Below are positions 4,008 through 63,609 of a stretch of DNA of 64,000 nucleotides, one piece after another. Positions within the stretch are counted from its first letter, which is position 1. Each line of letters opens with the position of its first letter. The translations under genes were made by a program, and so were the position numbers. The notes under the pieces are model-generated. The model was not told the DNA's origin and ran no database searches. It saw only the letters and a program-made list of their open reading frames with translations. The stretch covers positions 4,092,001 through 4,156,000 of the forward strand of contig NZ_CP009526.1 in the NCBI RefSeq assembly GCF_000969985.1, read 5' to 3'. Source of the DNA: Methanosarcina barkeri str. Wiesmoor. Its GTDB lineage: Archaea; Halobacteriota; Methanosarcinia; Methanosarcinales; Methanosarcinaceae.

Positions 4008-4787
4008 TTATTCGCCTCCTTTATTTGCAAGAAGTGCAAGCGGTATGGCGATTATATGAATATATTTACTGTACGGTATAAATGCAATACAGAAGAGCAG
4101 GGAAAATATGGAATGGAAGAGAGCGGCAGGTGGTGCTACTGAGGGATCAAGCCCAAAGCTCCAGATAAAGCCTGTTCGAATTCCATCGGCGATGAAACCG
4201 GAAATAGTAACTAAGAAAACTATTCCGATCAAAACCCAATCATACATAATGGAAGCTTCCCTGACTTCAGAGACAAACAGTCTTCTTACTAATGCTACAA
4301 GAACTCCGATAAGCAGGATATACCCGAAGATGTAGTTCGGAATTGAGAGAAAATCTCTAAATTCTGCGGGGGTGAACGGAAGTGCGATTCCGATCTTTTC
4401 GGTCATTTCAACTGCAAACATCATTCCTGACAGGGCAAATAGGGTCATCCAGCCCCCAAAAATAAATAGGTGCATGACCCAGCGGAAAGGACTTCTCTTG
4501 AGAATTCTTCTCTGGAAGAGAATATCAAGAATTAGAATTTCCAGAATAGATTCCCCACGATGATGAGATTCTGCGGTTACCTGACTCCACCAGGTTTTTA
4601 AGAATGTAATTGCACTTCCTTTTTTTCCTTCCTGAGGCTCAAGAGCATAACCTGTGACTCCTGTCCCCCATTTTTGAAAGTTGCTTATCAGACCATATAA
4701 GAAAATCACAATAGCTATTGTGCTAAATATCATAATCTGGACAAACGTCATCCTTAGTACATCCGAAAGCCCAGAAAAATAAAGCAT
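4008..4787 (-). CDS. hdrE: Heterodisulfide reductase subunit E (cytochrome b)
   Basis: Integral membrane di-haem cytochrome b of the HdrDE complex. It accepts electrons from methanophenazine and passes them to HdrD, contributing to the proton gradient. About five hydrophobic segments are visible, with histidines on or near several of them ([37 protein letters not shown]), suited to haem binding. The ATG at 4787 is the first in-frame canonical start, but the strong ribosome binding site AGGAGG lies 20 bases upstream of it. A start at an ATC or ATT codon four or five residues earlier would be better spaced. It is the promoter-proximal gene of hdrED. Confidence 0.95.
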
Positions 4788-30191: not shown

Positions 30192-31224
30192 AAGAAATTA
30201 TCACTCTTTTTTATTTGTTAGCATATAGTTAAGTATAATAATATTTAGACATAATAATATTTAAGCACAATAAGTAAAATAATTTCAGCAATAGTGATAT
30301 TTATTATATGAAAAGTAACAACAAATAAATCTAAGTAGTTAATAAATTTTACTAAATTAATTCATTCCGAAACTCTAAATTGATGTCGAAACTCTAAATT
30401 GATGTTTCGGAGTCTTAACTGCAGCTTTCACTCGGCAATGAGGCCTGTAAACTATCAATTGAGTTTCTTGTCATGGAACGTAATTCTAAAACTTTTATTT
30501 AGGGTTAATGGAACTTTTATTTCTGGAAATTCTTTCATAATCGTCACTCTCATATTTGATAGTTCATAGCGTAGAACTTGTAAATACACAAATTTAGTTG
30601 TGTTCAACTTTATTTTATAATAAAACAAATTTAATTGTTTTAAAATAATGACCAAACGCATATAAAAAAGTTTGTATTCCAACTATCGCGTAATTTATAT
30701 TAATTTATTTAAAACAATTTTATTTGAATTACCTCCATTATACTGTGATGATAAATTATATTTTTAATAGTTCAAAATAAAAAATATTTTACCTTATTCT
30801 TAAGAAAAAATCTGATTCTGGGATGGACTCTGAGATTGACTTCGTAGGAATAACCTTCAAATTTTCCTCAAATTTTTCATAAATTTCGTTAGAAGTTCAA
30901 AGATGAAACTCTCAAACAAAAATTAGTGAGAAATTTGTTTTGAAAGCTTTATCTCTGCCGTTTTATTCATCAATCGACTTTCCTCTACTCTGAACCGATT
31001 GATCAGCTTTAAAGGAAAACGGAATCCTATTTCCTAGAAGATATATAAATATATATGTATTTAAGATTTTCTCAAGACTATGAAGGCTGGACATTTTGTG
31101 GATTCAACAGTAGTTGGAAAAATTTCGTAACCTTCATAGGTTTGACAGAACCAATGAGAGCACTGGGTCAGAAAGAATGTAATAATGAAAATTAGATAGT
31201 TCGTCTGTAGTTCATCTGATTAGA
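30192..31224. other. Long A+T-rich gap, no gene seen
   Basis: About 1 kb without a credible gene. It has a 19-bp direct repeat (cgaaactctaaattgatgt, 30368-30406), repeats of ataataatatttaa near 30235-30265 upstream of the S-layer gene, and a small minus-strand frame at 30455-30682 that lacks a ribosome binding site and resembles nothing I know. A TATA-like ATATATAAATATATATG occurs at about 31040. Confidence 0.5.
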
Positions 31225-47425: not shown

Positions 47426-48631
47426 TCAATTTTTTTTACAACCTAATTTTTTCCTGTTTTCTTTCTGCCGGAAAATTTCCAATGGTGAGATATTCGGGAC
47501 TGAAAGGTCCTGCCCTGCCTGATAGCCGTAGAGTTCCTGAAATTCCACAGCAAAGGAATGCATAAAAAGGGCATTTGGGATATCCATTGGGCAGAGTTCT
47601 TCGCATTGTCCGCAGTTGATACAGGAATCTGCAACAAGGGAATATCGTAGTGCATGAAAGGCAAAGGAAGGAGGAACCTTTCCAGGGGTGATAGTAAAGT
47701 CTGATACTTTTGTCCCGGACAGGGCAGGACATACTTCAATGCAGGTATAGCACTTGATACAACGTGAAGTCTCATCCACAAGCTGTTTCAGGCGGGTTTT
47801 TCCCTCCCCTAACGACTGAAAATCTTTCTCTCTCCAGCCCTCGGCCAGCTTCAGCATCGACTTCTCGATTTTCCCCCGAATCTCCACCCCTTTTGGGACA
47901 GGAGGAAAAGTTTCAACCACGCCTGCAGTTTTTGCCTGTTTAAGTAGTTCTGCGCCTTTTGCACTGCATACCTCAACAAAGGTTGCTTCCATACCCATAA
48001 CGCCCCATTCTCCACAGGCAAGGTCAGCCTGCCTTGGGATTTTCAGTTTGCAGCGCCTGCAGTTACTTCTTCTTCCAAAGTTTGCCTCTTCCAATTTGTC
48101 TATGGGTATAGAAAACTCCTCTTCAGGAGTTTCAACGATAAACTTCCCCTTAGCAATCCTTTCCTTTTTAACCGAGTCAGGGTTAACTGAAAATGTTTCT
48201 ACAATCATCTTCCTTGCCATTTCCGGACTGATTGAGCCTCCGCAGTTTAGCCCAAGCATGAGGATATTTTCCAGCCTGACTTCTCCCCGCTTTGCAAGCT
48301 CATAAAGACCCATGACATCGCATCCTTTCAGGGAGACTGCAATTTTCAGGTTATCTGCCTTTTCCAGGTACTTGCTGAAAAGTCTGGACAGAAGAAGGGT
48401 CCCGAAATGCAGGGAACCCGAAATTTCCGAAATTTCTGCCGGGTCCGTAATCAACACAGGTACAGCATCATAGATGTCGGCTCCTTTCCTGACCCCGAGC
48501 ACTGCGTCCACACTTCCGCTTTCCAGTGCAAATTTCAATAGAGCTGAAACCGCACCGCCTGACTCACCTTTTTCCAGTAATTTCTGGTCACAAGCCTGGA
48601 CATAAAACATATCTCCTTCTGACGGTTTCAA
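47426..48631 (-). CDS. fdhB: F420-dependent formate dehydrogenase beta subunit
   Basis: A 401-residue FdhB/FrhB-type F420-binding Fe-S flavoprotein. The flavin/F420 domain is seen as ESGGAVSALLKFALESG, VSLKGCDVMGLYELAKRG and LGLNCGGSISPEM. Cysteines at NCRRCKLKIPRQADLACGEWG and two ferredoxin motifs in the C-terminal half (CIKCYTCIEVCP, CINCGQCEELCP) bind clusters. It transfers electrons between FdhA and F420. It starts with TTG (48631), overlapping the fdhA stop (TTGA) behind a GGAGG site; so fdhA and fdhB are coupled. Confidence 0.93.
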   Translation of the reverse strand: MKPSEGDMFYVQACDQKLLEKGESGGAVSALLKFALESGSVDAVLGVRKGADIYDAVPVLITDPAEISEISGSLHFGTLLLSRLFSKYLEKADNLKIAVSLKGCDVMGLYELAKRGEVRLENILMLGLNCGGSISPEMARKMIVETFSVNPDSVKKERIAKGKFIVETPEEEFSIPIDKLEEANFGRRSNCRRCKLKIPRQADLACGEWGVMGMEATFVEVCSAKGAELLKQAKTAGVVETFPPVPKGVEIRGKIEKSMLKLAEGWREKDFQSLGEGKTRLKQLVDETSRCIKCYTCIEVCPALSGTKVSDFTITPGKVPPSFAFHALRYSLVADSCINCGQCEELCPMDIPNALFMHSFAVEFQELYGYQAGQDLSVPNISPLEIFRQKENRKKLGCKKN

Positions 48632-50715
48632 AGCTTTTCCTCCAAAAGTTTACCTTCTTGAGGTTCTATTTTCTCAATTTTTACCGCACATGCCTTGTAC
48701 TCCGGAATCTTTGCCACGGGATCGAGAGCTCCGTTAGTCAGCAGGTTGGCTGCACATTCCTTAAAATGAAAAGGTATGAAGACAACCCCGGGTTTTATGT
48801 CTTCTGTGACCATTGAAGGGATTTCGATCTTCCCTCTCCGGGAAAGTACGCGGACTGTTTCTCGGTTGCGGATTCCTAACTTTTTCGCATCTTCCGGATG
48901 AAGCTCCACCCAGCCGGTTCTGACTTCGGAAGCAAGGGTTTTCGACCTGCGAGTCATAGTCCCTGTATGCCAGTGCCAGATGTTCCTTCCTGTAGTAAGA
49001 ATGAAAGGATATTCCACATCCGGAACTTCGGCTGGGGGCTTCCATTCAATGCCAGAAAACTCCGCCAGCCCATCAGAGGTGGAAAATTTTTCGGTATGCA
49101 GGATTGGAGTTCCTAGATGAGTTTTATCCGGGCAGGGCCACTGAAGAGAGTCAGGTTTTTCAAGGCGCTCATAACTCATGCCCCCATACTGGGGGGTAAC
49201 CTTTGCGATTTCCTCAAAAATCTCCGCTTCGTTCATGTAGGAAAATTGAGGCCCGTACCCCATACACCCGGCAAGTTCGCAGATGATGCGCCAGTCTGCC
49301 TTAGCATCTCCAGGAGGGTCTACGGCTTTCCTAATCCGCTGTACTCGACGTTCAGTATTGGTCTGGGTCCCGTTCTTTTCTGCATAACAGGCCGCAGGCA
49401 AGACAACATCAGCAAGATTTGCAGTCTCGCTCAGGAAAATATCCTGCACGACCAGAAAGTCCAGTTGCTTCATGGCTTTTCTTACCTTGTTTAGATCCGG
49501 GTCCGAGAGCATGAAATTTTCTCCCATAACATACATGCACTTCACAGTCGATGTTCCTTCTGCAAGCTGTTCCATCAGCTCCGTAACCGTAAGCCCTGGA
49601 GCTTTCGGAAGTCCGCTCACCCCCCAGATAGATTCCATTTTCCTGTGGTTTTCCGGATCTGCAACCTTCTGGTATCCAGGATACACATCCGGCAGGCAGC
49701 CCATATCACATGCTCCCTGTACATTATTTTGTCCCCGCAGGGGGTTGACTCCCCCTCCGGCAACTCCGAGATTTCCAGTTAGAAGCATTAAATTTGCCGT
49801 GGATCTCACGTTGTCAACTCCCACCGTATGTTGGGTGATGCCCATTGAATAAATGAGGGCCGATGGTTTTGATTGGGCAATCCACTCGGCTGCGGTTTTT
49901 AAGTCATTTTCTGGCACCCCTGTGATTTTTGAGACGTTTGGCAGGGAATAGGCCTCCTGTATGACCACGGATCTCATTTCCTCATAATTTTTTGTCCTTT
50001 TTGAGATAAATACCGAATCTTCCCAGCCATTTTCTATAATATGGTGCATGAGTCCATTTAGGAGAGAAACGTCCGTACCTGAATACATAGAAAGATGGAG
50101 GTCTGCCTGTTTTGCTGTGGGCGTGCAACGAGGGTCTGCACAGACTATTTTGGCCCCCTTCTTTTTCGCAAGCATTACTCTCCTTCCGATGAGTGGATGC
50201 TGCTCGAGGGTATTGCTACCGATAATGAAAATGCATTTAGACTCTTCAATGTCCAGGATGGAATTCGTCATGGCTCCCGAGCCAAAAACTGCGGCAAGGC
50301 CAGCGACTGTAGAGGAATGACAGAGCCTTGCGCAATGGTCAACGTTAGAAGTCTTAAGGACAGCACGGGCGAATTTCTGCATAAGGTAGTTTTCTTCGTT
50401 CGAGGTTCTTGCCGAAGAGAGGCAGGCAATTTCTTCAGGGAGAAAAGTCATGAATTTCCCTGCTATAAGGGCCAGGGCTTCTTCCCAACTTGTCTCTACA
50501 AGCTTCCCGTTTTCCCTGACCAGCGGCTTTACAAGTCTATCCTTGCTATGGATGAACTCATGAGCGTATCTGCCCTTTTGACAGAGCTTTCCTGCATTAA
50601 CGGGAGCCCGGTGCCAGGGCTCAATGCCTGCAGCCCTCCCATCTTTTACCACAATGTTAAACCCACATCCTGTCCCACAGTAAGGACAGGTCGTGGGCAC
50701 ATATTTCAATTCCAT
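48628..50715 (-). CDS. fdhA: Formate dehydrogenase alpha subunit (molybdopterin enzyme)
   Basis: A 695-residue Mo/W bis-MGD oxidoreductase: an N-terminal 4Fe-4S motif (TCPYCGTGCGFNIVVKDG...CQKGR), MGD-binding domains and the C-terminal segment (ILTTGRNIWHWHTGTMTRRS, VFIPFHFKECAANLL). The metal ligand is Cys in DHCARLCHSSTVAGLAA, at the place where some FdhA have selenocysteine. It oxidises formate to CO2 and passes electrons to F420 via FdhB. I use the ATG at 50715 (MELKYVPTTCPYC). The upstream gene (50828-52192) is an FmdB paralogue on the same strand. Confidence 0.94.
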   Translation of the reverse strand: MELKYVPTTCPYCGTGCGFNIVVKDGRAAGIEPWHRAPVNAGKLCQKGRYAHEFIHSKDRLVKPLVRENGKLVETSWEEALALIAGKFMTFLPEEIACLSSARTSNEENYLMQKFARAVLKTSNVDHCARLCHSSTVAGLAAVFGSGAMTNSILDIEESKCIFIIGSNTLEQHPLIGRRVMLAKKKGAKIVCADPRCTPTAKQADLHLSMYSGTDVSLLNGLMHHIIENGWEDSVFISKRTKNYEEMRSVVIQEAYSLPNVSKITGVPENDLKTAAEWIAQSKPSALIYSMGITQHTVGVDNVRSTANLMLLTGNLGVAGGGVNPLRGQNNVQGACDMGCLPDVYPGYQKVADPENHRKMESIWGVSGLPKAPGLTVTELMEQLAEGTSTVKCMYVMGENFMLSDPDLNKVRKAMKQLDFLVVQDIFLSETANLADVVLPAACYAEKNGTQTNTERRVQRIRKAVDPPGDAKADWRIICELAGCMGYGPQFSYMNEAEIFEEIAKVTPQYGGMSYERLEKPDSLQWPCPDKTHLGTPILHTEKFSTSDGLAEFSGIEWKPPAEVPDVEYPFILTTGRNIWHWHTGTMTRRSKTLASEVRTGWVELHPEDAKKLGIRNRETVRVLSRRGKIEIPSMVTEDIKPGVVFIPFHFKECAANLLTNGALDPVAKIPEYKACAVKIEKIEPQEGKLLEEKL

Positions 50716-50827
50716 GTTTCCATTTTCTCCTGAATACATTGGTATGTTCTGGTAAAATGATGGTTCATTAATGATAAGCTGATATTTTCAAAACAATTCA
50801 CATACCCATACTGCTTTCTTGAGGACT

Positions 50828-52192: not shown

Positions 52193-52801
52193 ACGCACTG
52201 CTCTCCGACATAAAATTTTGAGATTATATCTTCGGTGCACTTTTCAGAAAAAATCGATAGTAGCATCTCATCTTGCATTTTACGTACCTCTCAACATTGT
52301 TCTGTGCACTGCACAGCAGTTCGTTTTTATGCTAATGAACAGTGAACAGTAATTTCACAGCACTGTACCATTTTTATGAACTAGTACTTCAATGTCAACA
52401 GGTTTTCAGGAATACGCCTTTTCCCTGCAGCCAGGAAGACGGGTGGGGGAATCCAGTGAAGTCTGTGACCTTCCGGACACCAATAGAAAAAAAACCGTGT
52501 TCAACTTTTTGCTGCTGTTTACAAGTAAGTAGATTTCCAGACCTACATTTGTTACCAGTAAACTGCGTTATCTTTCAAATTCATATGGAATATATAAAGA
52601 ATTTGCATTGGGAAGTAAATTTACAACTTAGATATAAATATATCTTTACTTCACAATATTTAATGGAAATTAGATTTTTCTTTCCACACCTGGACTATAA
52701 ATATAAAGCTAATATTATTAAGCACGTAAGGTTCATATAGAGACATATTTATATAATATTTGGCGGGAGTCTAATTTCCGTATTAAATGGAGGATCAAGA
52801 T
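52193..52801. other. Divergent regulatory region between the fmdB-fdhAB and mop genes
   Basis: About 600 bases without a convincing gene. A small plus-strand frame (52342-52740) has no ribosome binding site or family resemblance. It contains the palindrome at 52302-52316, related half sites (cagcactgtacc near 52356, aacagtgaacag near 52336), and a plus-strand TATA stretch (ATTTATATAATATTTGG, about 52748) serving mop. Confidence 0.5.
52302..52316. promoter_or_regulatory. Perfect palindrome, candidate operator
   Basis: CTGTGCA-C-TGCACAG, seven-base arms round one base, about 110 bases upstream of the FmdB-like start. Sequences with similar half sites follow within 60 bases. A repressor acting on formate or molybdenum genes could bind here; the identity of the regulator is not known. 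Confidence 0.4.
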
Positions 52802-53011
52802 ATGAAACTAAGTGCACGCAACGTATTAAAAGGTAAAGTTAAAAGCATTGTCACCGGAATGGTAAACTCTGAAATCGTAATAGAATTACCAGAAGGGACA
52901 GAAATCACTTCCATCATTACAAAAACATCAGCTGAAAGTCTGGACTTAAAAGTAGGAAGCGAAGTCTACGCAGCATTCAAGGCTTCAAGTGTAATGGTAG
53001 CCGCAGACTAA
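52802..53011 (+). CDS. mop: Molybdopterin/molybdate-binding Mop (TOBE domain) protein
   Basis: A 69-residue single TOBE domain: MKLSARNVLKGKVKSIVTGMVNSEIVIEL, then LDLKVGSEVYAAFKASSVMVA. Mop proteins bind molybdate or tungstate as hexamers and act as storage or delivery proteins. GGAGGATC lies before the ATG at 52802, and the longer frame starts inside that site. It lies 740 bases ahead of modABC on the same strand. Confidence 0.9.
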   Translation: MKLSARNVLKGKVKSIVTGMVNSEIVIELPEGTEITSIITKTSAESLDLKVGSEVYAAFKASSVMVAAD

Positions 53012-53753
53012 TTACTTATTTTCATCATCAACTGATGGGAAGTATAGTCAAAAATAACTAATTTCGCATTCCGCAGAAGTGCAAAAAACTAACTGTTAAT
53101 ACCAACACTCGTTTAAAAAAAATAGAATTATTATATCTGTTGTACATCTGCGTAATGTGTATTTATATTTCCTCAGCATCTTTAAAGGAATTGCATCTTT
53201 AAAGGAATTTTACCTATACTGTCATGTTCTGGATACTTAGGAATAACGAAAATATAATTTCAATCATTATGTACCAATATTATCTTTGAAGGTTATTTGG
53301 AAAATAGAATTATATGGCCATTACCAAAGTGACCAAAGTGAAAACTTGAGTTTATTATTTAATTATTCCTTAACTTTATAATGTAGAAAATTCCACGGAA
53401 AAATTTGCTTCTTGAACATAAGTATTAATAAACTCCGAATAAACTCCTAAAAATAATAGATTGACTTATATGCACTTATATTATATAGGACTTAAGTGAT
53501 TAAGCTTTTTTATAAAAATTATTATTAAATTATCTTCATGCAATAAGAAAAATTAGCCAAAAAATCTTTGAGTTGAAATAATAAATCCATGATAAATAGA
53601 GTAAATATTATTACATCAACTTTACAGGTTTAAGGAAATAAAAATAGAAAAATAAAAAATTTGTTTATGATTCCAAGGGTTCACTGTTATCGATTTTGAA
53701 TGTAACGACGTAAGTACTTAATCATAACAAAAATATTTTGTGCAGGTGAAATT
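53012..53753. other. A+T-rich gap upstream of modA
   Basis: No gene. The stretch TTATATTATATAGG near 53477-53490 is the best TATA-like element for modABC, but would give a leader of about 250 bases. The phrase ctttaaaggaatt is repeated directly at about 53181-53210. Confidence 0.4.
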
Positions 53754-54587
53754 GTGAGAAAAGAACTGATAGTTCTGTTAGTAATATTAGGCGTATTCCT
53801 TGCAATAGGATGTACTGGTAATGGAAATGAAGCTACAAACGAAACTGATAACTCAGTCGTAGCAGAAACTTCGTCTTCCGAGCAGAACCCTGATGCTATA
53901 ACAGTATCTGCAGCTGCCAGTCTTACCGAAGCCTTTACTGACATAGAATCCCAGTTTGAAACCGAAAACCCTGACGTAGATGTGAATTTCAATTTTGCAG
54001 GGTCAGGGAATCTACGCCAGCAGATTGAAGGAGGAGCTCCTGTTGATGTTTTTGCTTCGGCTAACCAGAACCACATGGACATACTTGCCGGTGAGAAACT
54101 GATAGAAAACAGTACAAGGAAAGACTTTGCTCAGAACTCCCTTGTGCTTATAGTCCCTACAAACAGCGACCTCAATATAACTGGAATAAAAGACCTGACA
54201 GCCCCTGAAGTAGAGAAAATCAGTATTGGAAACCCTGAAACTGCCCCGGTAGGCAAATATGCAACCCAGGCATTGACCGAAGCAGGAATCTGGGACCAGA
54301 TAAAAGATAAGACGATACTTGCTGAAGACGTCAAACAAGTACTTACATACGTGGAAAGAGGAGAAGTGGATGCAGGTTTTGTGTACATGACCGATGCAAA
54401 GACCGCAGATCCTGGAACTATAAAAGTCGTTGCCACTGTCCCTGTAAATACTTCTATCAGTTATCCCATAGCCGTGGTTTCTGATTCTGATAACAAAGAA
54501 GAAGCACAGGAATTCGTGGATTTCATAACTGGAGACGAAGGACAGGAAATACTGGAAAAATACGGATTTACTCCCGAATCCGAATAA
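53754..54587 (+). CDS. modA: Molybdate ABC transporter, substrate-binding lipoprotein
   Basis: A 277-residue ModA starting with GTG (53754). The signal ends in a lipobox-like LAIGCTGNG with the Cys as anchor, followed by a Ser/Asn-rich linker. The ModA motifs are ITVSAAASLTEAFTDI, NFAGSGNLRQQIEGGAPVDVFASAN, LNITGIKDL and VGKYATQALTEAGIW. It binds molybdate or tungstate outside the membrane for ModBC. The gene heads modABC. Confidence 0.95.
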   Translation: MRKELIVLLVILGVFLAIGCTGNGNEATNETDNSVVAETSSSEQNPDAITVSAAASLTEAFTDIESQFETENPDVDVNFNFAGSGNLRQQIEGGAPVDVFASANQNHMDILAGEKLIENSTRKDFAQNSLVLIVPTNSDLNITGIKDLTAPEVEKISIGNPETAPVGKYATQALTEAGIWDQIKDKTILAEDVKQVLTYVERGEVDAGFVYMTDAKTADPGTIKVVATVPVNTSISYPIAVVSDSDNKEEAQEFVDFITGDEGQEILEKYGFTPESE

Positions 54588-54609
54588 AAAATAAGCTAAA
54601 AGCATAAAA

Positions 54610-55287
54610 ATGATCCCTATGCTGGACAAGATATGGTTTCCTTTATCTCTTACACTCTGGATAGCAGCCATATCGTCTATTCTCGTACTTTGCAGTGGCG
54701 TAACCATAGCTTATGTGTTTGCAAGACGTGATTTTCGGGGAAAAGGACTTGCGGAGCTATTCGTGACCCTCCCCCTTGTCCTTCCTCCTACTGTAATTGG
54801 TTACCTTCTTGTGATCCTGGTGGGAAGACATGGGTTTCTCGGACAGATGATTTTCAATGCTCTGGGGACCGGGATCATGTTTACCTGGCAGGCAGCAGTT
54901 ATTGCGGCTTATACGGTTTCTCTTCCTCTCATGGTTCATACTGCGAAAGCTGCCATTGAAGGAGTAGACAGGGAAATAGAGTATGCTGCCTATATCCTTG
55001 GAAAAAGTGAACTTGAGACTGTTCTGCAAATAACACTCCCTCTTGCAAAAAAGGGAATACTGGCAGGACTTATACTCAGTTTTGCCAGGGCTATTGGAGA
55101 ATTCGGGGCAACCCTCATGCTGGCAGGAAATATTCCGGGAAAAACTAACACAATGTCGATTTCAATATACAGCGCGTTTCAGGCAGGCAATAACGAACTT
55201 GCCAATCTGCTTGTATTAATCCTGGTATTTATGTCCCTGCTGACCATTGCACTTACCGGCAGATTTGTAGGAAAACTTGAGGTATGA
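54610..55287 (+). CDS. modB: Molybdate ABC transporter permease
   Basis: A 225-residue permease with about five hydrophobic segments and the EAA loop EYAAYILGKSELETVLQITLPLAKKGI near the cytoplasmic contact with ModC, plus FARAIGEFGATLMLAGNIPGKT. Together with ModC it imports molybdate. It starts 22 bases after modA and overlaps modC by four bases (ATGA). Confidence 0.94.
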   Translation: MIPMLDKIWFPLSLTLWIAAISSILVLCSGVTIAYVFARRDFRGKGLAELFVTLPLVLPPTVIGYLLVILVGRHGFLGQMIFNALGTGIMFTWQAAVIAAYTVSLPLMVHTAKAAIEGVDREIEYAAYILGKSELETVLQITLPLAKKGILAGLILSFARAIGEFGATLMLAGNIPGKTNTMSISIYSAFQAGNNELANLLVLILVFMSLLTIALTGRFVGKLEV

Positions 55288-56441
55288 AATTGGGCGTTAA
55301 AGTCGACCTTAAAAAACAGTATAAAGAAGCTGAAATCAATGGAAAAAAAAGTGCTAAGAAAGCTTTTACAAGTACTAAGAAAGCTTTTACGTTAGATATC
55401 AGCTTTGAAATGGGAAACGAACTTGTCGTACTTTTTGGGCCTTCTGGATCAGGAAAGACCACGTTATTCAAATGTATTTCAGGTATCACAGAACCTGATG
55501 ATGGAAAAATAACTGTGGGAAGTAAAGTTTACTACGACAAAAACCAGAAAATTAACCTGCCCATCCAGAAACGCAATCTTGGCTATGTTTTTCAGAACTA
55601 TACCCTCTTTCCTCACATGAATGTTAGAAAAAACATAGAATGCGGCCTCAAAGGCTGGGAAAAAGAGGACAAGGAAGCAAGGGTTGCAGAAATGCTGAAT
55701 CTTCTCCATATTGAAGAACTGGAAACCCGTTACCCGTCGCAGCTCTCAGGCGGGCAGAAGCAGAGAGTTGCTCTGGCAAGGGCTCTTGCCCCCAACCCTG
55801 GGATTCTGCTTCTGGATGAACCATTCTCCGCACTTGATACGGGAATAAGAACCAAACTTGCAGAAAAGATAAAAGATTTGCAAAATAAGATTGGAATACC
55901 TTTGTTGTTCATTACCCATAACTTTGAAGAAGCTTTCCTGCTGGCTGATAAAATTCTTATCTTGCATGGAGGAAAGGCTCAACAGTTTGGAACTCCAGAA
56001 GAAATCTTTTATCATCCTGAAAACCGGCATGTTGCAGACCTCACTGGCCTGTCCAACATTTTTGATGAAGCTAAAGTAGAAAGGTATGATGAAAAGTCAA
56101 AAAATATAATATTAAAAAGTGAGGATATGAGAATAAAAGTAAAATCTCAAAACCTTAAACCTGGAGATAAAGTTTCCTGGGGGATACATCCCGAGAACAT
56201 AACTCTTCTTTCACCGGATTATGGTTCTGAAGATCAGGATGAAAACATCTATTCTGCACATGTCAATAGTATCATCAACAAAGGGCCAAAAAAACGAATC
56301 ACACTTAAGCTTGTCAGACAAAATAAAACCCTTATTGCAGAAGTTCCTGCGCAATTTGTTGATTCCATGAAGCTTTGCGCAGGTGGTTTATGCCTGGTTA
56401 AACTGGAAACGAGTAAAGTGGTGGCATTCCGTAGCTTATAA
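55284..56441 (+). CDS. modC: Molybdate ABC transporter ATP-binding protein
   Basis: A 385-residue ATPase: Walker A FGPSGSGKTT, Q-loop region (QKRNLGYVFQNYTLFPHM), signature LSGGQKQRVALARALAP, Walker B ILLLDEPFSALD and the switch His (FITHNFEEAF). The last 120 residues form a TOBE-like regulatory domain (KPGDKVSWGIHPENITLL). An N-terminal insertion with repeated KKAFTSTKKAFT is unusual and is not part of the ABC fold. Energises ModB. End of the mod operon. Confidence 0.94.
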   Translation: MKLGVKVDLKKQYKEAEINGKKSAKKAFTSTKKAFTLDISFEMGNELVVLFGPSGSGKTTLFKCISGITEPDDGKITVGSKVYYDKNQKINLPIQKRNLGYVFQNYTLFPHMNVRKNIECGLKGWEKEDKEARVAEMLNLLHIEELETRYPSQLSGGQKQRVALARALAPNPGILLLDEPFSALDTGIRTKLAEKIKDLQNKIGIPLLFITHNFEEAFLLADKILILHGGKAQQFGTPEEIFYHPENRHVADLTGLSNIFDEAKVERYDEKSKNIILKSEDMRIKVKSQNLKPGDKVSWGIHPENITLLSPDYGSEDQDENIYSAHVNSIINKGPKKRITLKLVRQNKTLIAEVPAQFVDSMKLCAGGLCLVKLETSKVVAFRSL

Positions 56442-56812
56442 CTCAACAAATAGCACTTTTTTTGATAGGATGTCGGGCATCTGTAATTACAAGGCTTACA
56501 TTTTCAAAGACAAAACGTCAGTAGTTATCCCAACTTTCATCTTGACTCTTTATAGTCCGCATCAATATGTTTACATAAACATATCCAAGTTTCATATTAA
56601 TAAACTAGCAAATAATAACTTTGTAAATTATTTAAATAATGAATTACTCCAGATTGAATATAAATGAGCTTAAAATGCCTATTAAATAATATAAATGATC
56701 TGTTTTTATGTAAACTCTATATATAAGATTTTAGACTTTAGCGAGATTTATTTTTTAAAAAGATCCCTATTGTTAACTTGCAGTGATGAAAAATTATATA
56801 TAATATTAGATA
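56442..56812. other. A+T-rich gap after modC
   Basis: No gene. Plus-strand A+T-rich sequence between the mod and anf operons; nothing recognised apart from the promoter elements that follow at 56813. Confidence 0.4.
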
Positions 56813-56871
56813 GGAAATAGGTTACTGTTTTCCTATATTATAAATACATGTTATGTTTTAGAAAACATAAC
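56813..56871 (+). promoter_or_regulatory. Promoter and palindromic operator of the nifI-anf operon
   Basis: A box GGAA-N13-TTCC (56813-56833), flanked by an outer ATAGGAAA / TTTCCTAT inverted repeat, is followed by a TATA box (CTATATTATAAA, 56833-56844). A perfect inverted repeat GTTATGTTTT / AAAACATAAC with a two-base spacer follows at 56850-56871, overlapping the predicted transcription start (about 25 bases after the TATA box). That position fits an archaeal repressor site. Nitrogen regulators such as NrpR or a molybdenum-responsive repressor are possibilities. The box and TATA sequence recur on the other strand upstream of the anfH remnant at 63327-63361. Confidence 0.65.
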
Positions 56872-57146
56872 GTGATAAAAGTATAAAAGGGGGCTAAAAA
56901 CACACTAGAAGACTATTAAAACTCGGATAATTCGCTACGCGATAGGACAAAATAGTGCAGAAATAAAGTTCAACCTTTTTTGTCGATTACGATGGTCTGT
57001 GTAATCGGGAAAAAGAAGAGGTAAGCTTGCACTTGAAATTATCGAAAAGAAACTGTTGTTGCCACAAAGCTTCTTGATATGAGTTAAACGCAATTTCATT
57101 CACTACACAGCATAAAACTTCATTGTGTACCACAAAACTTCATTTG
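56872..57146. other. Leader of the nif/anf operon; anfH expected here is absent
   Basis: About 330 bases of transcribed but apparently non-coding sequence lie between the promoter and nifI1. The usual first gene of such operons, anfH, is not present. Direct repeats of cataaaacttcatt and cacaaaacttcatt occur at about 57110-57143. Confidence 0.5.
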
Positions 57147-57186
57147 CCGCCGAATGATGTTTCGTATTACAAAGTTTGTTCGGCGG
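57147..57186 (+). promoter_or_regulatory. Hairpin in front of nifI1
   Basis: CCGCCGAA (57147-57154) and TTCGGCGG (57179-57186) pair perfectly, extended by wobble pairs to about 11, round a 24-base loop. Its end is five bases before the AGGAGG site of nifI1, so it may affect translation or mark an RNA processing site formerly located behind anfH. Confidence 0.5.
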
Positions 57187-57202
57187 TGAAAGGAGGACTA
57201 AT

Positions 57203-57520
57203 ATGAAAATGATTAAAGCTTTAATACGTCCTGAAGCCGCTGATGACGTTATAGAAGGACTTGCAGAGGGGGGATTTGTTTCACTAACAAAAATAGATGC
57301 ATTTGGCCGTGGAAAACAAAAAGGAGTCACAGTTGGAACAATACACTATGATGAGCTTCCTAAAACCATGCTTATGCTAGTTGTAGAAAATGAATCTGTT
57401 GAAGAAGTTGTTAAACTCATCAAATACAAAGCGTACACCGGTTATCAAGGAGACGGTAAAATTTTCGTCATTCCCGTTGACAATGCATACACAATACGTA
57501 CCAGGGATGCAGGCCTTTGA
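57203..57520 (+). CDS. nifI1: Nitrogen regulatory PII-like protein NifI1
   Basis: A 105-residue GlnB/PII superfamily protein of the NifI1 type: MKMIKALIRPEAADDVIEGL, FGRGKQKGVTVG, then YTGYQGDGKIFVIPVDNAYTIRTRDAGL. NifI1 and NifI2 bind 2-oxoglutarate and ATP and switch nitrogenase activity off after ammonium addition by binding to the dinitrogenase. The start at the ATG at 57203 is set by AGGAGG; the longer frame overlaps the hairpin. Usual place in the operon is between the reductase gene and the D gene. Confidence 0.92.
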   Translation: MKMIKALIRPEAADDVIEGLAEGGFVSLTKIDAFGRGKQKGVTVGTIHYDELPKTMLMLVVENESVEEVVKLIKYKAYTGYQGDGKIFVIPVDNAYTIRTRDAGL

Positions 57521-57533
57521 GGAGGGTGAAATT

Positions 57534-57911
57534 ATGAAAGAAATAATTGCAATAATCCGTCCAAAAAAAGTTGTGCCTACAAAAGAAGCCCTTGAGAAAC
57601 TTGGTGTTCCGAGTTTAACTGCGATTCCAGTTTTTGGAAGAGGTAAACAAAAAGGTATCGCAACCGAACTTGACATTGAGATTCGCCCTGAAATTCTGGA
57701 TCAGAGCATAAAAGCTGGGAGGAGGATGGAATATATTCCCAAGCGCCTGTTTTCCATAGTTACCCGTAATGAAGATGTTGACACAATAATTGAAACAATT
57801 ATGAAGGTTAACCAAACTGGTGACATCGGTGATGGGAGGATTTTCATCTGTCCTGTTGATGATGCCATTAGAGTAAGAACAGACGAACATGGCGACAACG
57901 CTCTTCTATAA
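57534..57911 (+). CDS. nifI2: Nitrogen regulatory PII-like protein NifI2
   Basis: A 125-residue PII-type protein: MKEIIAIIRPKKVVPTKEALEKLG, VFGRGKQKGIATEL, a longer T-loop region (SIKAGRRMEYIPKRLFSIV) than NifI1 and a C-terminal GDGRIFICPVDDAIRVRTDEHG. It acts together with NifI1 in post-translational shut-off of nitrogenase. The start at 57534 follows GAGGGTGA; a longer overlapping frame exists but reaches into nifI1. Confidence 0.92.
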   Translation: MKEIIAIIRPKKVVPTKEALEKLGVPSLTAIPVFGRGKQKGIATELDIEIRPEILDQSIKAGRRMEYIPKRLFSIVTRNEDVDTIIETIMKVNQTGDIGDGRIFICPVDDAIRVRTDEHGDNALL

Positions 57912-59868
<1,957 letters not shown>

Positions 59869-59883
59869 GGAAAAGGAAATATC

Positions 59884-61272
59884 ATGTCTTGTGAACTAAA
59901 ACAACGAGAACGTCCAGGAATTATCAACCCTATATTCACATGCCAGCCTTGCGGAGCACAGTATGCCAGCGTAGGAATAAAGGATTGTATCGCGATTGTT
60001 CATGGGGGACAGGGATGCGTAATGTTCGTTCGTATGCTATTCGCGCAGCATTTCAAGGATAGCTTCGAGATCGCATCCTCGTCTCTTCACGAGGATGGTG
60101 CAGTATTTGGAGCCCTTAATAGAGTCGAAGAGGCTGTAGATGTTCTTTTGATGAGGTATCCACATGTAAAGGTCATACCTATCATCACAACATGCTCGAC
60201 GGAAGTCATCGGCGATGATATTGATGGTCTTATTAGGAAACTTAACAAAAAGCTTTTGAAAGAGAAATATGCAAATCGGGAAGTACATCTTATTCCGATT
60301 CATACTCCAAGTTTTAAAGGAAGCATGATAACAGGATACGATGTGGCGGTGCATGATATCGTAAAAGAGTTTGCAAAAAAAGATAAACCTAATGGAAAAC
60401 TCAATCTAATTACCGGATGGGTCAATCCGGGAGACGTTACAGCGCTCAAGCACCTTCTATCAGAAATGGACATAGATGCAACAGTCCTTTTCGAAATCGA
60501 AAGCTTTGATTCTCCTTTGATGCCGGATAAAAGTGGATTCGCCCACGGTAGCACAACGATAGAGGACTTGACCGGAACTGCGGATGCACTGGGAACAATT
60601 GCATTGAACAAGTACGAAGGTGGGAAAGCTGCCGAATACCTTAAAAACAAATTTGATGTTCCTGCAATCATAGGACCGACTCCTATTGGAATCCGTAATA
60701 CGGATACGTTCCTGCAAAATTTAAAAAAAATGACCGGAAAACCAATTCCCGAATCACTTGTTCGTGAGAGGGGAATTGCAATCGACGCAATTACCGATCT
60801 TACCCATATGTTTTTTGCCGACAAAAAGGTTGCCATTTACGGAAATCCAGACCTTGTCATAGGTCTTGCTGAATTCTGTCTAGATATGGAGATGAAACCT
60901 GTGGTTCTTCTTCTTGGCGATGACAATAACACATATAAGGATGATCCGCGCATCAAAGAATTCCAGGAAAAAGTCGATTTCGATATGCAGATCATTATGA
61001 ACGCAGATCTGTGGGAACTTGAAAGGCGGATCAAGGATAAGGAAGTTGAACTTGATCTTATCCTGGGACATTCCAAGGGTCGCTGGACTGCTATTGATAA
61101 CAATATCCCGATGGTACGTGTAGGTTTCCCTACATTTGATCGTGCAGGGCTATACCGCCATCCAGTTGTTGGGTATGAAGGTGCTATATGGCTCGCTGAA
61201 CAGATGGCAAACACACTTTTCACCGATATGGAATTCAAAAAGGATAGGGAATGGATATTGAATGTATGGTGA
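59884..61272 (+). CDS. anfK: Fe-only nitrogenase beta subunit
   Basis: A 462-residue AnfK: INPIFTCQPCGAQYASVGIK with the first P-cluster Cys, IVHGGQGCVMFVRML with the second, PIITTCSTEVIGDDIDGLI with the third, and IIGPTPIGIRNTDTFLQNL. The sequence is clearly Anf-like (LILGHSKGRWTAIDNN, GYEGAIWLAEQMANTLF). It forms the catalytic heterohexamer with AnfD and AnfG. It is the last gene of the operon; no anfE or anfN-type gene follows. Confidence 0.95.
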   Translation: MSCELKQRERPGIINPIFTCQPCGAQYASVGIKDCIAIVHGGQGCVMFVRMLFAQHFKDSFEIASSSLHEDGAVFGALNRVEEAVDVLLMRYPHVKVIPIITTCSTEVIGDDIDGLIRKLNKKLLKEKYANREVHLIPIHTPSFKGSMITGYDVAVHDIVKEFAKKDKPNGKLNLITGWVNPGDVTALKHLLSEMDIDATVLFEIESFDSPLMPDKSGFAHGSTTIEDLTGTADALGTIALNKYEGGKAAEYLKNKFDVPAIIGPTPIGIRNTDTFLQNLKKMTGKPIPESLVRERGIAIDAITDLTHMFFADKKVAIYGNPDLVIGLAEFCLDMEMKPVVLLLGDDNNTYKDDPRIKEFQEKVDFDMQIIMNADLWELERRIKDKEVELDLILGHSKGRWTAIDNNIPMVRVGFPTFDRAGLYRHPVVGYEGAIWLAEQMANTLFTDMEFKKDREWILNVW

Positions 61273-62651: not shown

Positions 62652-62971
62652 TAGAAAACACCCTATCTTTATACTTAGCATGATAATACAGAATAAAACT
62701 GGCTCCCAATGCTCCTTTTGATTTTCTACTCCTTATCAAATTTAAGCCTTGTATGGCAATTCACTGATTAGTTTAGCGATGGTTTGAAAAACCATAGTTA
62801 GGACAACCTTACTACCCAAGTTAATGACGAGATCGATAGTCAAAGAAAGGATAAAGTAGAGTACTTTCATTTATCTGTGCCTGTTATTCGAAGAATATCA
62901 TGTGTGTTTAGTTATGTAAAAATTATATTTAGTGAAGGTTAGTTGATTTTTTGTCCTTTGATATATCGATG
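62652..62971. other. Gap, no gene seen
   Basis: Sequence between the FMN-binding protein and the anfH remnant. The continuation of the anfH frame (to 62898) is no longer homologous to nitrogenase reductase. No other feature recognised. Confidence 0.45.
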
Positions 62972-63164
62972 CTTCCTTAGAGTATCCCATTATCGTATTT
63001 TGAGGTACACCGCCAAGTACTAAACGAGCACAGTCAGCTTTGGGGGTCACAGCCATGAATGAAAACATTTTTTCCATGATAATATGCCATAGCTGCTGCA
63101 GTATTTTGTTGAGTGGTGAATTATCCAATGCCACCTTTCCATAAAAAGCAATTTTTCGGATCAT
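62972..63164 (-). pseudogene. anfH: Truncated, frameshifted anfH (nitrogenase iron protein) fragment
   Basis: Starting at the ATG at 63164 the strand reads MIRKIAFYGK, then one base is missing (near 63135). In the corrected frame it continues GGIG, a TAA in place of the P-loop Lys codon (63121-63123), TTQQNTAAAMAYYHGKNVFI and HGCDP. An extra C in the run at 63042-63046 brings in KADCARLVLGGVPQNTIM, and a further extra base leads into MDTLRK. Homology then stops after about 72 residues. These are clear N-terminal AnfH motifs, so this is a broken copy of the gene that normally heads the anf operon. Confidence 0.85.
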
Positions 63165-63609
63165 TGGCACTCTTTAAATATTCATAATAATTATTACAAA
63201 ATTCACTTATTTCAGCATTTTATTTTGAGCAACTACTTATTCTAAACAAGTAACAAGTTTCTTTTATGCAGCTTACTCCAGTTCCAGGCCTCCTATATTG
63301 TGTCAGATAACTTTATTTTAGACGAATATAATATAATATAGGAATACACTAACCTAGTTCCGATTTGATAATATAAATAATTATTGGGTATAAAAAATAA
63401 GGACTTTATAGAGCAAGAGTACTCATGCCTGGCAAAGTTATGAGTGAGCGTAATAATGGGACTCTATAAGTTATAACTAAAGAAATAACATAAGTTTTAG
63501 TGGATAATTTACATCCACATCTTTTCAAAAGGTATGCATTTTCCAGAAAAACATTATTTCCTGCCGTTAAGTATTTAAAAGAGAACAGATATTTGAGTAT
63601 CCTTGTAAA
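63165..63609. other. Upstream region of the anfH remnant and of tRNA-Trp
   Basis: No gene. Besides the promoter relic at 63327-63361, a TATA-like GTATTTAAAAG at about 63569-63579 lies 30-40 bases before tRNA-Trp on the plus strand. Confidence 0.4.
63327..63361 (-). promoter_or_regulatory. Promoter relic upstream of the anfH fragment, copy of the anf promoter box
   Basis: On the minus strand the box GGAA-N13-TTCC at 63361-63341 is followed by TATATTATATTATA. It matches the box and TATA region at 56813-56844 in about 26 of 30 positions. It lies about 165-180 bases upstream of the anfH start. The 22-bp palindrome of the live promoter is not repeated here. Confidence 0.65.

What the first reader, a model, noticed from the sequence alone, without database searches (positions are those of the whole stretch)
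56850..56871. Perfect 22-bp palindrome at the predicted start of the anf transcript
Arms GTTATGTTTT and AAAACATAAC with a two-base spacer sit just after the TATA box, where an archaeal repressor would block transcription initiation. The same site is missing at the anfH relic, so it belongs to the live promoter. It could mediate molybdenum or ammonium repression of the Fe-only nitrogenase.
Basis: partly seen in the sequence, partly recalled or inferred. Interest (0 to 1): 0.65.

Follow-up and report, generated by a model that had tools for sequence, protein, structure and literature searches.

The report
Molybdenum switch of the iron-only nitrogenase
The palindrome is very probably the docking site of the molybdenum-sensing repressor ModE, which would let this methane-making archaeon switch on its molybdenum-free nitrogenase only when molybdenum runs out; the same site guards nearly every other molybdenum-related gene set in the genome and in its relatives.

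Summary
The 22-bp palindrome is exactly where reported. Palindromicity alone is unremarkable here (about 0.9 such palindromes expected per window), but the sequence recurs. In the whole genome GTTATGTTTN4AAACATAAC (≤2 mismatches) has 7 sites and 0 reversed-control sites. All 7 lie upstream of anf, vnf (two sites), a second modABC, fmd (formylmethanofuran dehydrogenase) or two related substrate-binding-protein genes. It is absent from nif (0 of 6 genomes) and present in 31/31 Methanosarcina genomes. Across the order it tracks a ModE-like gene (200 sites vs 20 control in 111 modE+ genomes; 8 vs 9 in 39 without). In other genera it lies beside modE or modA. Its dyad register equals the E. coli ModE consensus. 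Verdict: a Mo-box bound by an archaeal one-Mop ModE, most likely repressing anf when Mo is present. Ammonium control more likely runs through a separate element 38-39 bp upstream (TAGGAAATAGGTTACTGTTTTCC), whose variant occupies the same register in nif promoters; this spacing holds in 15/15 anf/vnf promoters. Mo-boxes in Methanosarcinales are not new; the composite architecture is the fresh part.

The parts
56850..56871 (.). Mo-box: predicted ModE operator GTTATGTTTTAGAAAACATAAC (proximal site of the anf promoter)
56564..56585 (.). Candidate distal Mo-box AATATGTTTACATAAACATATC (3 mismatches), 286 bp upstream of the proximal one; distal sites are also seen in most vnf and anfH promoters
   Evidence: (2 hits in window vs 0.06 expected); no distal site upstream of anfI1 in G004 or G028 in the stretches examined
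56811..56833 (+). Conserved N-type element TAGGAAATAGGTTACTGTTTTCC, probable nitrogen operator, starting 38-39 bp before the Mo-box in 15/15 anf/vnf promoters
56795..56802 (+). Conserved TATA box (TATATATA), starting 16 bp upstream of the N-type element; probable true core promoter
56839..56846 (+).
57203..57520 (+). nifI1 (PII-like) of the anf operon
57534..57911 (+). nifI2 of the anf operon
57933..59525 (+). anfD (TIGR01861, above cut-off)
59506..59868 (+). anfG
   Evidence: conserved position and sequence between anfD and anfK in relatives
59884..61272 (+). anfK (TIGR02931, above cut-off)
62898..63170 (-). anfH relic (first ~75 residues recognisable, in shifted frames); its promoter has lost the Mo-box
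63341..63363 (-). N-type element TCGGAACTAGGTTAGTGTATTCC retained upstream of the anfH relic

Best explanation
The palindrome is a Mo-box: the DNA site of an archaeal ModE dimer. The genome encodes one HTH-plus-Mop protein of this kind (C2:4,493,272-4,493,868, 198 aa). When molybdate (or tungstate) is present, ModE binds it through its Mop domain, sits on the box and blocks transcription of nifI1-nifI2-anfDGK. When Mo is depleted it lets go. A separate element 38-39 bp upstream, at the core promoter and of the same kind as in nif promoters, most likely carries the fixed-nitrogen signal. The Fe-only nitrogenase would then be made only when both fixed nitrogen and Mo are scarce. Shown: the site, its recurrence at Mo and alternative-nitrogenase genes, its conservation and spacing, its co-occurrence and gene linkage with modE, and its absence from nif. 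Inferred: physical binding by ModE, the sign (repression), the exact start site, and the nitrogen role of the upstream element.
For: Own genome: all 7 sites (<=2 mismatches) lie upstream of anf, vnf (2), modABC copy 2, fmd, and two paralogous Peripla_BP_2 genes; reversed control 0. Genus: 31/31 genomes; orthologous sites at modA, fmd, vnf, anf and the same Peripla_BP_2 genes in G001, G003 and G004. Order: 200 sites vs 20 control in 111 modE+ genomes, 8 vs 9 in 39 modE- genomes; Fisher p about 3e-11 for presence. Linkage: the site lies between modE and modABC in family f5 (L117, L118), upstream of modA in a modABC-mop-modE operon (L121), and upstream of modA in L243, L244 and L246. Footprint: 15/15 anf/vnf promoters have a box (0-4 mismatches) starting 38-39 bp after the start of the N-type element; TTAT and AACATA columns invariant or nearly so. 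Regulator: TIGR00637 E=3.5e-18, Mop E=1e-17, PDB hits ModE-type 2ijl and 1o7l plus Mop proteins. Register: CGTTATGTTT-NN|dyad matches the published E. coli consensus CGNTATATA-NNN|dyad (PMC545781). No Mo-box (<=3 mismatches) in the nif regions of six genomes. PMC9765008 states that in Methanosarcinales ModE controls modABC and also affects nitrogenase types.
Against: No binding or expression data here. The ModE homologue is divergent (below the TIGR00637 curated cut-off, HTH_1 just below Pfam's cut-off) and has one Mop domain, not two. The site in G017 is weak (4 mismatches). The fmd operon, also preceded by the box, encodes a Mo enzyme that one would expect to be activated, so the sign may differ by promoter. 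24 of 111 modE+ genomes have no site at this threshold.
Confidence: 0.88

Rival explanations
1. The palindrome is a nitrogen (ammonium) operator, e.g. of NrpR, rather than a molybdenum operator.
For: It lies in a nitrogen-fixation promoter close to the start site.
Against: Absent from the nif promoters of six genomes. Present at modA, fmd and transporter genes that have no obvious nitrogen role. The adjacent element TAGGAAATAGGTTACTGTTTTCC shares GGTTAC(C/T)G..TTCC and the register to TATA with the nif element TAGTACAACGGTTACCGGYTTCC and is the better nitrogen candidate.
Confidence: 0.03
2. The palindrome acts as an RNA hairpin in the 5' leader (attenuator, stability or roadblock structure) rather than as a protein-DNA site.
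For: As RNA it folds well (-12.2 kcal/mol, z -6.4), and from the conserved TATA it would be transcribed.
Against: Any perfect DNA palindrome folds. Only 3 of 15 orthologous sites keep all ten pairs, and the inner pairs break without compensation. No Rfam family. The same site lies at unrelated operons at different distances from the gene.
Confidence: 0.03
3. ModE binds here but acts as an activator or has mixed effects, as E. coli ModE does at some Mo-enzyme promoters.
For: The box also precedes fmd, an operon for a Mo enzyme.
Against: At anf/vnf the box lies downstream of the core promoter elements, a repressor position. A published title cited in PMC10500019 (Chanderban et al. 2023) says V- and Fe-nitrogenase expression in M. 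acetivorans is controlled by Mo; that the control is repression is from general knowledge.
Confidence: 0.05
4. A chance palindrome in AT-rich intergenic DNA.
For: Bare palindromes of this size are expected about once per window.
Against: Sequence-specific recurrence, conservation at fixed spacing and modE linkage.
Confidence: 0.005

Closest known systems
Mo-box / ModE operator of E. coli modA and of Rhodobacter capsulatus anfA, mopA and morA (MopA/MopB)
   Same: Palindrome with the same dyad register (CGNTAT...ATANCG), upstream of modABC, Mo enzymes and, in R. capsulatus, the control of Mo-free nitrogenase; partner protein with ModE HTH and Mop domain
   Different: Inner half-site GTTT rather than ATA; archaeal TATA promoter; box on the anf/vnf operons themselves rather than on an activator gene (anfA); regulator with one Mop domain
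Archaeal ModE sites predicted by Studholme & Pau 2003 (BMC Microbiol 3:24; paper not held, known here from citations in PMC545781 and PMC9765008)
   Same: Same kind of site, in Archaea; cited for ModE control of modABC and nitrogenases in Methanosarcinales
   Different: Whether this anf site and the fixed spacing to the nitrogen element were described there could not be checked
NrpR-type nitrogen operators of methanogen nif promoters
   Same: Short palindromic repressor sites near the TATA box of nitrogen-fixation operons
   Different: Sequence unrelated to the palindrome; the neighbouring element at 56811-56833 resembles the nif element instead

Membership tests
ModE / Mo-box regulon | Operator in the ModE register (CGNTATATA-N6-TATATANCG, dyad 12 bp from C) | tested here: met
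   CGTTATGTTTNN|dyad; matches CGNTAT at the same distance from the dyad, inner letters differ
ModE / Mo-box regulon | Genome encodes an HTH + Mop-domain ModE homologue | tested here: met
   L015:9273-9869, TIGR00637 E=3.5e-18 (65.5 bits, below curated 98.5), Mop E=1e-17 above cut-off; PDB ModE hits
ModE / Mo-box regulon | Two tandem Mop domains as in E. coli ModE | tested here: not met
   198-aa protein with one Mop stretch; so it is a one-Mop variant, and the claim rests on HTH + Mop rather than on the E. coli two-Mop layout
ModE / Mo-box regulon | Sites upstream of molybdate transport and Mo-enzyme genes, or of their Mo-free substitutes | tested here: met
   modABC, fmd, vnf, anf in several genomes; absent from nif
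ModE / Mo-box regulon | Motif tracks the regulator gene across species | tested here: met
   200 vs 20 control in 111 modE+ genomes; 8 vs 9 in 39 modE- genomes
ModE / Mo-box regulon | Molybdate-dependent DNA binding and repression | not testable with these tools
   needs gel shift and reporter work
NrpR operator (for the palindrome) | Shared with nif promoters | tested here: not met
   best match in 700 bp upstream of nifH has 6-8 mismatches in six genomes
NrpR operator (for the element at 56811-56833) | Shared with nif promoters at the same register to TATA | tested here: inconclusive

The most novel reading that the evidence does not exclude
Alternative nitrogenase promoters of Methanosarcina are a fixed composite module: TATA, nitrogen operator over the start site, then the Mo-box starting 38-39 bp further, entirely inside the transcribed leader. 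ModE would then act as a downstream block on promoter clearance or early elongation in an archaeon, giving an AND-gate in one ~80-bp unit used for both vnf and anf.
Probability: 0.4. Interest if true: 0.5.

Novelty: new member of a known kind. Interest (0 to 1): 0.42.

Why it matters
It names the likely switch, down to the base, by which a methanogen chooses between Mo, V and Fe-only nitrogenase, and identifies the regulator gene to delete. The fixed nitrogen-element plus Mo-box module gives a directly testable two-input promoter in a genetically tractable genus; genome G001, whose chromosome length is that of M. acetivorans C2A as I recall it, has the same module. It also yields a predicted ModE regulon with an uncharacterised metal-type transporter conserved in it.

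Tried and rejected
Bare palindrome statistics: not significant by themselves. A looser ModE-like pattern GTTATNTN8ANATAAC with 1 mismatch is uninformative (39 places vs 41 control), so only the stricter arms were used. RNA hairpin or Rfam element: rejected. NrpR identity of the palindrome: rejected. Two weak matches (C2:2781199, AAA ATPase; C2:3407838) were judged chance because they have 3 mismatches and no relevant neighbour was seen. Placing the start site by sequence alone: two TATA candidates, and no transcript map was available. Papers that would have settled prior art (Studholme & Pau 2003; Chanderban et al. 2023; Chien et al. 2000) are not held. The genome-contig scan gave other Anf loci but not this strain.

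Full report
WHAT IS THERE. Window 56850-56871 is GTTATGTTTT-AG-AAAACATAAC, exactly as reported. Downstream lie nifI1, nifI2, anfD, anfG and anfK. Upstream lie mop (52787-53011) and modABC (53754-56441). Palindromicity as such proves nothing in this AT-rich DNA: three palindromes of this class occur in the window against about 0.9 expected.

RECURRENCE. Searching the whole genome with the exact arms gave seven places at ≤3 mismatches and none for the reversed control. With the arms trimmed to GTTATGTTTN4AAACATAAC and ≤2 mismatches there are again seven sites and no control hit. These are anf; two sites in the intergenic region before vnfH; a second modABC copy; the fmd operon; and two paralogous Peripla_BP_2 substrate-binding-protein genes. 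All seven lie in front of molybdenum, alternative-nitrogenase or metal-type transporter genes. The same pattern is present in 31 of 31 Methanosarcina genomes with almost no control hits. In the genomes where neighbours were inspected it precedes modA, fmd, vnf, anfH, anfI1 and the same Peripla_BP_2 genes. A few sites in G001 and G004 have no obvious Mo-related neighbour (L230, L231, L239, L241).

THE REGULATOR. A TOBE/Mop search of the genome found three proteins: the free-standing Mop in this window, an ATP-binding ModC-like protein, and a 198-aa protein with an N-terminal ModE helix-turn-helix (TIGR00637, E=3.5e-18) and a C-terminal Mop domain with the SARN motif. Its solved relatives are ModE proteins and Mop/ModG molybdate binders. 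It is a divergent, one-Mop ModE, not the two-Mop E. coli form. Across 150 genomes of the order, 111 encode it (≥100 bits). In those the motif has 200 hits against 20 for the control. In the 39 without it there are 8 against 9. In other genera the site lies between modE and modABC (L117, L118), or just upstream of modA in a modABC-mop-modE operon (L121), or upstream of modA alone (L243, L244, L246). The dyad register, CGTTAT with 12 bp from C to the dyad, equals the E. coli consensus ATCGNTATATA-N6-TATATANCGAT as printed in PMC545781.

PROMOTER ANATOMY. Aligning 15 anf, anfH and vnfH promoters from eight Methanosarcina genomes shows one module. It runs: a TATA stretch; 16 bp (14-18) later an element TAGGAAATAGGTTACTGTTTTCC or close variant; then the Mo-box, starting 38 or 39 bp after the start of that element in every case. 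The Mo-box letters TTAT and AACATA are invariant or nearly so. nif promoters of six genomes carry TAGTACAACGGTTACCGGYTTCC (1-2 mismatches) at a similar distance from TATA but no Mo-box. The shared middle element is therefore the better candidate for nitrogen control, and the Mo-box marks only the Mo-free nitrogenases. Genome-wide, the middle element also occurs at the two Peripla_BP_2 operons and before a B12-binding corrinoid-protein gene of a methylamine methyltransferase operon (next to an mtbB PYLIS element), which fits a nitrogen theme. That it binds NrpR is inference from resemblance; the published operator could not be read.

POSITION RELATIVE TO THE START. That stretch decays in the vnf promoters of G004 and G028, whereas the TATATATA at 56795-56802 has a counterpart in all 15. 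Taking archaeal starts about 25 bp after the TATA centre (general knowledge), the conserved TATA predicts a start near 56823-56827, inside the nitrogen element, and the Mo-box at about +25 to +48. The other TATA would put the start inside the box. Both readings allow repression: one by a block on early elongation or promoter clearance, the other by covering initiation. Only transcript mapping can decide.

THE anfH RELIC. The fragment at 62898-63170 (minus) is an anfH relic, its reading frames shifted. Its promoter keeps the TATA-like stretch and the nitrogen element but not the Mo-box.

ALTERNATIVES. An RNA hairpin is unlikely: only 3 of 15 orthologous sites could form the full stem, and the inner pairs break freely. 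Nitrogen control through the palindrome is unlikely because nif lacks it while modA and fmd have it. An activating role at anf is possible but less likely given the position. At fmd the sign is open.

WHAT IS KNOWN. PMC9765008 states, citing Studholme & Pau 2003 and Chanderban et al. 2021, that in Methanosarcinales modABC is under ModE control and that ModE also affects nitrogenase types. The existence of archaeal Mo-boxes is in the title of the 2003 paper. R. capsulatus offers the bacterial parallel, where ModE-like MopA/MopB repress anfA through Mo-boxes (PMC6925177). The kind of switch is therefore known, and this is a new, well-defined member. What I did not find described is the fixed nitrogen-element/Mo-box module and the likely in-leader position of the box. 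The key earlier papers were not readable here, so that statement is limited.

CONFIDENCE. ModE operator: high. Repression by Mo: high by inference. Nitrogen role of the neighbouring element: moderate. Leader position of the box: moderate.

Noticed in passing
L012:10611-11738 (-), L111:6946-8046 (+), L106:391-1494 (-): Two paralogous Peripla_BP_2 substrate-binding-protein genes carry a Mo-box 18-40 bp upstream of the gene and the N-type element ~130-170 bp further up, conserved in several species; one lies beside fmd. Candidate Mo, W or V uptake system of the ModE regulon.
   Followed up: partly
window 53649-55369 vs L011:7941-9662: Two modAB copies share 87% DNA identity from about 105 bp upstream of modA. 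The copy in the window lacks a Mo-box, the other has one.
   Followed up: partly
window 62898-63170: anfH is only a relic although anfDGK look intact, so any Fe-only nitrogenase here must borrow another reductase such as VnfH.
   Followed up: partly
window 31014-31036 (-) and L143:4270-4292 (+): Two further N-type elements precede a small-protein gene: a ~54-aa ORF (MNKMTEKKLSKQISQ...) at L143 and a truncated 15-aa version (MNKTAEIKLSKQISH) in the window. Possible nitrogen-regulated small protein.
   Followed up: partly
L141:3343-3987 (-), N-type element at 4044: The nitrogen-type element lies directly before a B12-binding corrinoid-protein gene next to an mtbB pyrrolysine insertion element, suggesting nitrogen control of methylamine use.
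   Followed up: partly
window 56872-57202: Unusually long, partly conserved leader (about 330 bp) between Mo-box and nifI1, present also in G004 and G028 but much shorter in G001; no RNA family found.
   Followed up: partly
window 47426-50739 (-): fdhB-like and fdhA-like genes (F420-type formate dehydrogenase) beside an fmdB-like gene, mop and modABC.
   Followed up: no
L147 (JAUPKS010000251.1): Contig filed in a Planctomycetota genome bin carries an anf operon with four Mo-boxes matching those of Methanosarcina G002: a misbinned Methanosarcina contig.
   Followed up: partly
L109/L165 (G017), L110 (G002): anfD and anfK read in broken frames in these draft genomes; G017 also has the weakest Mo-box (4 mismatches). 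Sequencing error or decay.
   Followed up: no
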